Positions 22,943 to 25,493 of a stretch of DNA of 64,000 nt are shown here, piece by piece. The notes below the pieces were generated by a model, which worked only from the letters and a program-made list of their open reading frames with translations, was not told the origin of the DNA and ran no database searches. Each line of letters starts with the position of its first letter. Position 1 is the stretch's first letter. A program made the translations under genes and the position numbers. Location: positions 1 through 64,000 of the forward strand of contig JAJFLB010000001.1 of NCBI GenBank assembly GCA_021772915.1, written 5' to 3'. This DNA is from Gammaproteobacteria bacterium (GTDB lineage: Bacteria > Pseudomonadota > Gammaproteobacteria > Xanthomonadales > SZUA-36).

Positions 22943-24049
22943 ATGGAAATTTTCGAAACGATTGGGTCCACGCAACATGAACAAGTCGTCTTCTGCAACA
23001 ATAATGATGCCGGCCTCAGGGCCATTATCGCCATTCACAATACGACACTGGGTCCGGCCTTGGGCGGCCTGCGCATGTGGCCCTATGGCTCTGAGCAAGA
23101 GGCACTGGACGATGTTTTGCGTCTCTCAAGGGGTATGACCTACAAAGCCGCTGTATCCGGCCTCAATCTGGGCGGTGGCAAGTCAGTCATTATCGGTGAC
23201 CCAAGAAAAGACAAGTCAGAAGCCCTGTTTCGGGCTCTCGGTCGTTTTATTGATTCGCTGAATGGACGCTATATCACCGCTGAAGACGTGGGCATCGATG
23301 TCAATGACATGGAGTTCCTGTTCCAGGAGACCAATAACGTCGTCGGTGTACATCAGGTGCACGGGGGCTCAGGTGACCCATCACCCTACACGGCATATGG
23401 CACACTGCAGGGCATCAAGGCCGCATTGCAGTGGAAATTTGGCGATCAGGAAGTGGGTAAGTACAGTTTTGCAGTCCAGGGGGCAGGCCACGTCGGTCTC
23501 CACCTGATCAAACTGCTGCGTGAAGAGGGTTCCAAGGTGTTTGTATCTGATTTCAACTCGGAGGCAGTGGCCGAAGCAGTAGAAACCGGTGCTGAAGCCG
23601 TAGGCCTTGAAGACATTTATGACGTCGACGCTGATGTTTTCAGTCCCTGTGCGCTGGGCGCAGTTGTCAATGCGGAGACCATTCCCCGTTTTAAATTCAA
23701 AATCGTGGCCGGCGCCGCCAATAACCAGTTGGCGACAGAAGAGTCTGGTGATGAATTGGCGGCACGCGATATCCTGTACGCCCCTGATTACGCCGTCAAC
23801 GCCGGTGGACTGATGAATGTCTCCATCGAGTTTGAAGGCTGGAACAAGGAACGTGCCATGCGCATGACACGTACCATTTACTACAACGTCAGCAAAATAT
23901 TCAGCATTGCCGAACGTGACGAGATTCCCAGCTACAAGGCTGCAGACCGTATGGCCGAAGAGCGCATTGACATCATTGGCAGGCTTAAACTGCCCCACAT
24001 GGGCAAGCCACACCGCTTCCCGGGTCGGGAGCGAACGCACGCTTGCTAG
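22943..24049 (+). CDS. ldh: Leucine dehydrogenase (Glu/Leu/Phe/Val dehydrogenase family)
   Basis: A 368-residue NAD-dependent amino acid dehydrogenase that reversibly deaminates leucine (also valine and isoleucine) to 2-oxo acids. The N-terminal domain has GPALGGLRMWPY and the catalytic lysines in GMTYKAAVSGLNLGGGKSV; the C-terminal Rossmann domain has AVQGAGHVGLHL. The ATG at 22943 follows GGAGGAGC closely, a strong ribosome-binding site. It starts a plus-strand catabolic series divergent from the biosynthetic operon. The TAG stop lies at the start of a 23-bp inverted repeat arm that begins a large structured element. Confidence 0.92.
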   Translation: MEIFETIGSTQHEQVVFCNNNDAGLRAIIAIHNTTLGPALGGLRMWPYGSEQEALDDVLRLSRGMTYKAAVSGLNLGGGKSVIIGDPRKDKSEALFRALGRFIDSLNGRYITAEDVGIDVNDMEFLFQETNNVVGVHQVHGGSGDPSPYTAYGTLQGIKAALQWKFGDQEVGKYSFAVQGAGHVGLHLIKLLREEGSKVFVSDFNSEAVAEAVETGAEAVGLEDIYDVDADVFSPCALGAVVNAETIPRFKFKIVAGAANNQLATEESGDELAARDILYAPDYAVNAGGLMNVSIEFEGWNKERAMRMTRTIYYNVSKIFSIAERDEIPSYKAADRMAEERIDIIGRLKLPHMGKPHRFPGRERTHAC

Positions 24050-24317
24050 TACTCCGTCCATGTGATAATTACGGATTCAGAGGTACCCAGATGTTTCAGG
24101 ACAAGACGCAGACAGCAGAGAATGGCCCGGTCCTTCTCAAGGGCTGCAACGTAGTACTGGCACATCTGGGTACCTCCCTGCGGGCGAGCTGGGAAGCGGT
24201 CGTCCGTGGCGCCGCATCACTTGGCAAGGACCGGGCCATTACCTGCGTGCTGCAACCCCACGGACGACCACTTCTCAACTCGCTGAACTCGCAGTTATCA
24301 CATGGACGGAGTACTAG
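24046..24317. other. Large structured element: three-way junction with kissing loops (E1)
   Basis: A 272-bp element fills nearly the whole gap between ldh and liuA. P1: perfect 23-bp inverted repeat, 24046-24068 with 24295-24317. P2: perfect 14-bp stem, 24081-24094 with 24162-24175. P3: 26-position stem, 24184-24209 with 24258-24283, with two C-A and one G-T non-canonical pairs. A perfect 15-bp complementarity joins the P2 loop (24121-24135) to the P3 loop (24226-24240). No open frame of note. This is strong folding potential, not random sequence. Function unknown: structured RNA, mRNA processing site or small mobile element. Confidence 0.8.
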
Positions 24318-24335
24318 GAGTCCGCCAGATTTAAC

Positions 24336-25493
24336 ATGAACTTAAGCATGCCATTGAGCGAGGACCTCGAACTGCTGCGCGAAACCGTGCGTCGCTTTGC
24401 CGAGAGCGAAATCTCACCGCGGGCTGCGGAAATCGACAGCAGCAACACTTTTCCGCAGGATTTGTGGCCCAAGCTGGGTGAGCTCGGGTTACTGGGGATG
24501 ACCGTTGAGGAATCCCTGGGAGGTTCCAGTTTTGGCTACCTGGCCCACGTGGTAGCAATGGAGGAAATTTCCCGGGCTTCAGGCTCCGTTGGCCTGTCCT
24601 ATGGTGCCGACAGCAATCTGTGCATGGATAACCTGCGCAAGAACGGCAGTGAGGTACAAAAGCAAAAATACCTGCCGGGTCTGTGCAAAGGTGAACTGGT
24701 TGGCGCCCTGGCGATGTCAGAATCCGCCGCTGGTTCAGACGTGGTGGGTTCCATGAGCTGCCGGGCAGAATTGAATGGTGATTTCTGGCTGGCCAATGGC
24801 TCCAAGATGTGGATCACCAACGGTCCGGAAGCCGATGTGCTGATCGTCTACATGCGTACCGCTGATAAAAGTGCGGGGTCATCAACCATGACCGGATTCC
24901 TGGTCGAGAAAGGAATGTCCGGCTTCAGCACCGCCCAAAAACTCGACAAGTTCGGTATGCGTGGTTCCAATACCTGCGAGCTGATCTTTGAAAATTGTGA
25001 GATCCCGGTTGCTAATGTCATCGGAGCTGTTAACCGCGGCGTCAAATTGCTGATGGGAGGCCTCGATACCGAACGTCTCGTGTTGTCAGGTGGCCCGCTG
25101 GGACTGATGCAAGCCTGCCTTGACCTGGTTATCCCCTACCTGGCGGAGCGCAAACAGTTTGACCGTGCCATTGGCTCCTTTGGCGTTATGCAGGCCAAGC
25201 TGGCAGATATGTACACCGCGCTGCAATCATCCCGCGCCTACGTGTATCGTATTGCACAGGACTACGATGCAGGCAAACGATCCCGAATTGACCCGGCCGC
25301 CTGTTTGTTGCACGCATCAACCAGTGCCGTAAACGTTGCCCTGGAAACCATCCAGTCACTGGGTGCCAATGGTTATAGTAATGAATACCCGGCTGGCCGC
25401 ATATTGCGGGATGCCAAGTTGTATACAATCGGAGCGGGGACCAACGAGATCCGCAAAATGTTGATCGGTCGTGAGCTCGTGGGTTCCCGATGA
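24336..25493 (+). CDS. liuA: Isovaleryl-CoA dehydrogenase
   Basis: A 385-residue FAD acyl-CoA dehydrogenase for the third step of leucine breakdown (isovaleryl-CoA to 3-methylcrotonyl-CoA). The segment [11 protein letters not shown] is characteristic of the IVD subgroup, and the catalytic base lies on the inner helix as in human IVD: Glu246 in [15 protein letters not shown]. The C-terminal signature [17 protein letters not shown] and [15 protein letters not shown] is intact. The final residues GSR and the TGA stop are encoded by a dispersed palindromic repeat beginning at 25484. The gene is bracketed by two large stem structures (24046-24317 and 25540-25664). Confidence 0.94.

What the first reader, a model, noticed from the sequence alone, without database searches (positions are those of the whole stretch)
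24046..24317. Three-way-junction element with a 15-bp kissing loop between ldh and liuA
Seen directly: 23-bp perfect outer stem, 14-bp perfect second stem, a 26-position third stem with three non-canonical pairs, and a 15-bp perfect match between the loops of stems two and three. Such nested plus crossed pairing over 272 bp cannot be chance. Inference: a structured RNA, RNase-processing site or non-autonomous mobile element. The ldh stop codon lies within the outer arm. No reverse transcriptase, integrase or homing nuclease is next to it.
Basis: partly seen in the sequence, partly recalled or inferred. Interest (0 to 1): 0.85.

Follow-up and report, generated by a model that had tools for sequence, protein, structure and literature searches.

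The report
Two-armed hairpin transposon with changeable ends
The folded 272-base stretch is one copy of a small, gene-less jumping element, present in many copies in this genome and in many related bacteria, whose ends resemble those of IS630-type insertion sequences while its two-hairpin middle is conserved by paired mutations.

Summary
The genome holds many copies, 23 of them with both ends called. Ends begin GTR and are mostly bordered by TA, often CTAG. Same-genus genomes hold empty sites. It is a MITE of the IS630/Tc1-mariner type. Six of ten IS630s with GT-starting ends resemble termini of family members, against 0 of 20 others. No IS630 was found in this genome, so the mobiliser of this copy is inferred.

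A covariance model of one arm finds the family in 91 of 398 order-level, 96 of 369 class-level and 38 of 299 phylum-level genomes. Length stays near 270 bp while the ends differ completely. Outer stem and both arms covary (26 of 26 non-redundant elements). The "kissing" helix does not (11 better, 15 worse than swaps): arm 3 is an inverted homologue of arm 2, so in this lineage both loops carry one motif in opposite orientation. What the folded core does is unknown. Rfam has no match; my literature searches found no description.

The parts
24046..24317 (+). whole element with both CTAG borders; element proper 24049-24314 (starts G, ends C)
   Evidence: other copies diverge outward from here
24047..24048 (.). 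left copy of the TA target (inside CTAG 24046-24049, which also gives the ldh stop codon TAG)
   Evidence: TA duplication inferred from copies, empty sites
24315..24316 (.). right copy of the TA target (inside CTAG 24314-24317)
24049..24080 (+). left terminal inverted repeat (outer stem, 5' side)
   Evidence: covariation in 23 of 32 outer pairs
24283..24314 (-). right terminal inverted repeat (outer stem, 3' side)
24080..24176 (+). arm 2: hairpin, stem 24080-24102/24154-24176
   Evidence: changes on both sides in 17 of 21 pairs; model R1 hit 24076-24189, 115.8 bits
24176..24184 (+). tiny hairpin between the arms (CCC TGC GGG)
   Evidence: minimum-energy fold; nearly invariant CCC..GGG in A1
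24184..24283 (-). arm 3: inverted homologue of arm 2; stem 24184-24209/24258-24283
   Evidence: 16 of 23 pairs with changes on both sides; model R1 of arm 2 hits 24171-24287 on the - strand, 55.9 bits, E 1.3e-11
24121..24135 (+). loop motif of arm 2, complementary to 24226-24240 in this copy
   Evidence: complementarity not kept over the family
24226..24240 (-). loop motif of arm 3 (same motif, inverted)

Best explanation
A non-autonomous IS630-type transposon (MITE) of about 270 bp. Shown here: it is dispersed in the genome and absent from the same sites in relatives; it has terminal inverted repeats of about 32 nt that start GTR and are bordered by TA, often CTAG; its two hairpin arms are inverted homologues of each other; the outer stem and both arm stems are kept by paired changes. 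Inferred: a Tc1/mariner-type transposase encoded by an IS630 element recognises the two ends in trans, cuts the element out and inserts it into the TA of a new CTAG. In the window that CTAG supplies the stop codon of ldh, so the insertion leaves both neighbouring genes intact. Inferred and weaker: the arms are selected as a folded strand (extruded or single-stranded DNA, or read-through RNA) that helps the element move or be tolerated; which of these is not shown. The kissing helix is mostly a by-product of the mirror symmetry plus a motif shared by the two arm tips in this lineage.
For: Many copies in the own genome, 23 with both ends called, G/C as first/last base at 45 of 46 ends, TA on both sides in 13 of 23 and on at least one in 22 of 23, CTAG at 28 of 46 ends. 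Empty sites: L016 site in 8 of 9 same-genus genomes with exactly 4 bases at the junction; L012 site with an intact CTAG in 3 of 7 aligned loci. IS630 ends like element ends: 6 of 30 IS630s at P<=0.01, all among the 10 with GT-starting ends; the same six pass with the first three bases held fixed (11 of 19 ends at P<=0.033). IS630 L335 and element L257 match at 25 of 30 positions; L194 and L183 share GTGTCATGTCA after CTA; G660 carries both an IS630 with GTACTCC ends (L333) and elements with GTACTCC ends (L348). Stems: own partners beat swapped ones in 26 of 26 diverse elements for each of three stems. Arm homology. No coding signal.
Against: No IS630 transposase was found in the own genome (97.96% complete; by DDE_3, by protein), so the mobiliser of this copy is not shown. 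Presence of the element and of DDE_3 do not go together over the class sample: 21 of 369 genomes have both, 21.9 expected (counted by hand). Four of the ten GT-starting IS630s match no element, and 22 of 49 class-level IS630 loci looked at gave no callable ends. Ten of 23 own copies lack TA on one or both sides and only 11 of 31 diverse elements have TA on both sides as called; some distant ends are not GT-type. At the L016 site the empty sequence of relatives is TCAG/TCAA, not CTAA, so the duplicated bases cannot be read directly.
Confidence: 0.82

Rival explanations
1. A structured RNA (regulatory, or an RNase III / mRNA-stability element) with a functional kissing loop, dispersed as a secondary matter.
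For: Very stable fold; stems covary; stem 2 tolerates G.T far more than A.C (69:8), as an RNA of the + strand would. NEMIS and ERIC transcripts of other MITEs are reported to be processed (PMC2229807 passages).
Against: The minus strand folds better in 35 of 55 elements; stem 3 has more A.C than G.T (126:90); the loop-loop helix is not kept; copies sit in all gene arrangements, 17 of 23 codirectional, 4 divergent, 2 convergent, no background compared; no transcript data.
Confidence: 0.1
2. The complementarity of stems is kept not by selection on a fold but by template switching or gene conversion between inverted arms, which homogenises them.
For: A 22- to 23-nt insert is found at mirrored places of the two arms in different copies (arm 2 in L012, L018, L013, L014; arm 3 in L011, and reverse-complemented in arm 3 of L027, L029, L033, L047, L183 and of L170-L173), as exchange between arms would give.
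Against: Conversion between arms should also keep the loop-loop pairing, which is not kept. Length is 264-274 bp in 27 of 31 diverse elements. Arm-tip motifs are nearly invariant.
Confidence: 0.25
3. A REP/REPIN-like element moved by a Y1 (RAYT) transposase: CTAG followed by a hairpin resembles GTAG-tagged REPs.
For: A tetranucleotide next to each hairpin foot; short 41-bp single hairpins exist (L046).
Against: Borders are TA-centred on both sides with empty-site evidence, and ends resemble IS630 ends. The Y1 family was not searched.
Confidence: 0.04

Closest known systems
RUP of Streptococcus pneumoniae with IS630-Spn1 (passages of PMC2229807)
   Same: Non-coding element with TIRs like those of an IS630 element; TA target; mobilisation in trans proposed
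   Different: RUP is 107 bp in one species; this family is about 270 bp with two covarying arms, found across a phylum with many unrelated TIRs
Correia/NEMIS and ERIC/IRU elements (passages of PMC2229807)
   Same: Small TA-bordered repeats with TIRs whose transcripts form long stem-loops
   Different: They are 107-168 bp single stem-loops formed by 5'-3' end pairing, without side arms according to that review; no sequence comparison was made here
CIR of Caulobacter and Brucella (passages of PMC2229807)
   Same: Two long arms joined by a linker
   Different: CIR has no TIR in that review's table; here the two arms sit inside long TIRs
IS630 family insertion sequences (PF13358), with CTAG preference known from the title of Tenzen and Ohtsubo 1991 in the reference list of PMC2170065
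   Same: TA target within CTAG; ends alike over up to 25 of 30 nt
   Different: No transposase gene; the two-arm core is not found in 11 IS630 loci tested with the family profile (best E 0.045)
P. fluorescens R178/R200 repeats (passages of PMC2718517)
   Same: Dispersed intergenic repeats of similar kind in Pseudomonas; R200 is 320 bp
   Different: Sequences not given in the text seen, so identity was not tested

Membership tests
MITE (non-autonomous DNA transposon) | Dispersed multicopy, short, no transposase gene | tested here: met
   no Pfam match in the 98-aa reading frame across it; no codon-position signal
MITE (non-autonomous DNA transposon) | Terminal inverted repeats | tested here: met
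MITE (non-autonomous DNA transposon) | Target-site duplication and empty sites | tested here: met
   Empty sites shown; TA on both sides in 13 of 23 own copies; exact duplicated bases not readable at the L016 site
MITE (non-autonomous DNA transposon) | Movement by a transposase in trans | not testable with these tools
   Inferred from end similarity
IS630-associated MITE | Ends shared with an IS630 element | tested here: met
   6 of 30 IS630s, all GT-starting. For the window copy itself the best matches are L202 and L327, 20 of 30, in other genomes
IS630-associated MITE | Matching IS630 in the same genome | tested here: not met
   None in the own genome; one suggestive case elsewhere, G660. 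So the family is filed under IS630-type MITEs by its ends, not this copy by a resident partner
Rfam structured RNA family | Match at gathering score | tested here: not met
   0 matches in the window; weak microRNA-model hits far below cut-off
Pseudoknotted (kissing-loop) RNA | Compensatory change in the crossed helix | tested here: not met
   Family: 4330 of 5000 permutations as good, 11 better and 15 worse. Near relatives: weak signal, 31 of 5000 for 34 copies and 87 of 5000 for 12
REP/REPIN | Y1/RAYT transposase association | not tested
   No search made

The most novel reading that the evidence does not exclude
A single ancient two-arm core, conserved in fold, length and arm-tip motifs over a phylum, changes its outer ~30 bp to fit whichever IS630 transposase is at hand: a modular parasite of transposons whose core itself does something as a folded nucleic acid, rather than an internal deletion of one insertion sequence.
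Probability: 0.4. Interest if true: 0.8.

Novelty: new variant of a known kind. Interest (0 to 1): 0.6.

Why it matters
Bacterial MITEs are mostly described as species-bound repeats, with few links to a transposase (PMC2229807 names RUP as the exception at its date). Here one fold of nearly constant length, not found in the IS630 loci tested, recurs in about a quarter of the class-level genomes sampled (96 of 369) with unrelated ends, some of which follow IS630 termini. If borne out, non-coding elements can persist by changing transposase, and the covarying arms make selection on the fold of a transposon testable. In practice such copies end contigs in draft genomes and place a stop codon and a long hairpin between genes.

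Tried and rejected
Rejected: an isolated structured RNA (multicopy with empty sites). The kissing loop as a family feature. A decayed gene: a 98-aa frame (24043-24339) runs across the element and 17 of 27 near-full copies are open in at least one frame, but it has no Pfam match; over 26 diverse elements stops per frame are like those of shuffles, and difference rates at the three codon positions are 0.261, 0.258 and 0.269 (core only 0.219, 0.219 and 0.251). Derivation from an IS630 interior: the family profile finds nothing convincing in 11 IS630 loci.

Led nowhere: blastn of the window element against plasmids and phages and of L260 against plasmids: no match. Co-occurrence with DDE_3 over genomes: none (21 of 369 against 21.9 expected). 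The 30 class-level IS630 loci with the best DDE_3 scores were of other end types. Sites L043 and L029 gave no junction-spanning match, L018 an ambiguous one. Elements L344, L352, L356 and others had no callable ends.

Rows dropped: profile, end and tree-free comparisons left out L256, L318, L319 (uncertain ends; L319 kept) and L249-L252 and L254 (same places as earlier loci); L157 repeats L027. Pairings over 330 bp (such as L026, L156) are spurious. One search used 26 of 55 aligned elements after an 80% identity filter, one search used 34 of 37 and 12. End calls searched only near the profile position, so the length range leans on the profile. Searches scored 9, 10 and 12 candidates per genome, so copy numbers there are lower bounds; one search scored 150. 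The shuffles (100 each) do not hold the GT start fixed; one search does.

Papers: searches (PubMed Central open library only; ISfinder and subscription literature not searched). Seen: passages of PMC2229807, PMC2170065 and PMC2718517; all others as listings. Nezha and other IS630-linked MITEs are known to me by recall only and were not compared.

Full report
WHAT IS THERE. The three stems and the 15-bp loop-loop match are as described and far beyond chance. No Rfam family matches; the weak hits are microRNA models far below their cut-offs.

IT IS MULTICOPY. The own genome (4.68 Mb, 71 contigs) holds many copies, the closest 94% identical. In the stretches fetched, 23 copies have both ends called: full ones of 267-275 or 291-295 bp, and shorter ones of 189 (three), 138, 69 and 41 bp that keep the ends. 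Three contigs stop inside a copy (L013, L014, L015) and three within about 60 bases of one (L019, L022, L023). Flanks differ from copy to copy outward from the border.

BORDERS. Of 46 ends, 45 have G/C as the first/last base. TA is on both sides in 13 of 23 copies and on at least one side in 22 of 23; full CTAG is at 28 of 46 ends. The base outside TA varies, which points to TA as the duplicated target inside a preferred CTAG. Joined flanks of six sites were searched in nine same-genus genomes. At the L016 site eight of nine genomes are uninterrupted, with exactly four bases (TCAG in seven, TCAA in one) where the element sits. At the L012 site three of seven aligned loci show an intact CTAG, one shows TTA, and three alignments end before it. 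At the window site four loci have a short spacer, too diverged to read the duplication. Ten more distant ldh loci also lack the element there. In the window the CTAG gives the ldh stop codon.

PALINDROME RATHER THAN PSEUDOKNOT. A profile built from 27 elements hits all 27 on both strands (window, reverse: 101.6 bits, E 1e-29). A covariance model of arm 2 (R1) hits arm 3 on the opposite strand (55.9 bits, E 1.3e-11). So arm 3 is an inverted homologue of arm 2 and the crossed helix is the mirror pairing of an old palindrome. On 37 aligned copies (A1) changes on both sides occur in 23 of 32 outer pairs, 17 of 21 in stem 2, 16 of 23 in stem 3, 6 of 28 in the main crossed helix and 2 of 4 in its extension. 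Swapping partners between elements destroys the stems (0 of 5000 permutations as good) but the crossed helix only slightly: 31 of 5000 for 34 copies, 87 of 5000 for 12, own better than the median swap in 18 and worse in 16. Over 26 diverse elements the three stems beat swaps in 26 of 26; the crossed pairing does not (4330 of 5000; 11 better, 15 worse; a long perfect match beyond shuffles in 5 of 26). In many distant elements the tip of arm 3 carries another motif.

SPREAD. With the window DNA, 13 of 101 genomes match, the own one included. With R1 at E<=1e-5: 91 of 398 genomes in the order, 96 of 369 in the class, 38 of 299 in the phylum; 20 of those 38 lie outside the class, 18 of them in one family (the samples overlap and include the own genome). 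With deeper scoring the complete genome G518 has 55 matches and G024 60, both arms counted. The fold and both arms were checked for L108, L383 (V. campbellii) and L384 (P. aeruginosa plasmid). By ldh the nearest named relatives of the host are MAGs labelled Gammaproteobacteria, Oceanospirillales or Lysobacterales (up to 89% identity), then Wenzhouxiangella at about 80%.

ENDS DIFFER, CORE STAYS. Of 31 diverse elements with called ends 27 are 264-274 bp, while their ends are largely unrelated. Core and end identity correlate only moderately (r 0.48 over 55 elements); 32 pairs have cores at least 78% identical with ends at 60% or less, where shuffled ends average 51%. End exchange and fast joint drift were not told apart.

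IS630 LINK. DDE_3 genes occur in 4 of 39 genomes of the family and 84 of 369 of the class, none in the own genome. Ends of 30 IS630 elements were compared with 77 element sequences against shuffled ends: 6 of 30 reach P<=0.01 (L194, L202, L327, L330, L333, L335), all among the 10 with GT-starting ends, 0 of the other 20. With the first three bases held fixed the same six stand out (11 of 19 ends). IS630 L335 GTGGTCCATGCGGTTAATTAGGTAA compares with element L257 GTGGGCCATGCGGCTAATTAGGTAA; L194 and L183 share GTGTCATGTCA. G660 has an IS630 with GTACTCC ends (L333, 1389 bp) and an element with GTACTCCGTCAA ends (L348). The window's own end is closest to L202 and L327 (20 of 30). Against this: DDE_3 and the element do not go together over genomes (21 of 369 with both, 21.9 expected, counted by hand), four of the ten GT-starting IS630s match nothing, and 22 of 49 IS630 loci had no callable ends.

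STRAND AND CODING. In 55 elements G.T and A.C mispairs are 74:68 in the outer stem, 69:8 in stem 2 and 90:126 in stem 3; the minus strand folds better in 35 of 55. Related sequences share changes, so this is at most a hint that arm 2 is selected as one particular strand. There is no coding signal.

JUDGEMENT. An IS630-type MITE is well supported for the family; for this copy the transposase is inferred. The work of the arms is open. The closest described case that I saw is RUP with IS630-Spn1 (passages of PMC2229807). The two-arm core, its spread and its differing ends were not found in searches.

Noticed in passing
A1 columns about 107-130, 195-217, 261-283 and 307-333; L012, L011, L027, L170 and others: A 22- to 23-nt module (AAGAGTAGGCGCC..., or its reverse complement) is inserted at mirrored places of the two arms in different copies, at most one per copy; also seen in other genera (L265, L269).
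   Followed up: partly
L046/L158 (own genome C41), L042/L162 (C4), L193 (G005), L188 (G014): Minimal forms of 41-89 bp keep only the ends around a single hairpin, suggesting that ends of about 12-15 bp may suffice for movement.
   Followed up: partly
L013, L014, L015, L019, L022, L023: Contigs of this draft genome end inside or next to copies, so the true copy number is probably higher.
   Followed up: no
L324 (G518:C1:865500-868800): A weak element (38.5 bits) with TTAACC-type ends lies beside an IS630 gene fragment; its ends resemble IS630 L278 (18 of 30, P 0.21), which would be a second end type if real.
   Followed up: partly
L370, L372, L312/L379, L383: Elements in several genera outside the own order, Vibrio among them, share TATACCC-type ends, unlike the CTAG/GTR type.
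   Followed up: no
window 24043-24339: A 98-aa frame runs through the element in phase with the left CTAG; the same frame is open in many own copies, but no coding signal was found.
   Followed up: yes
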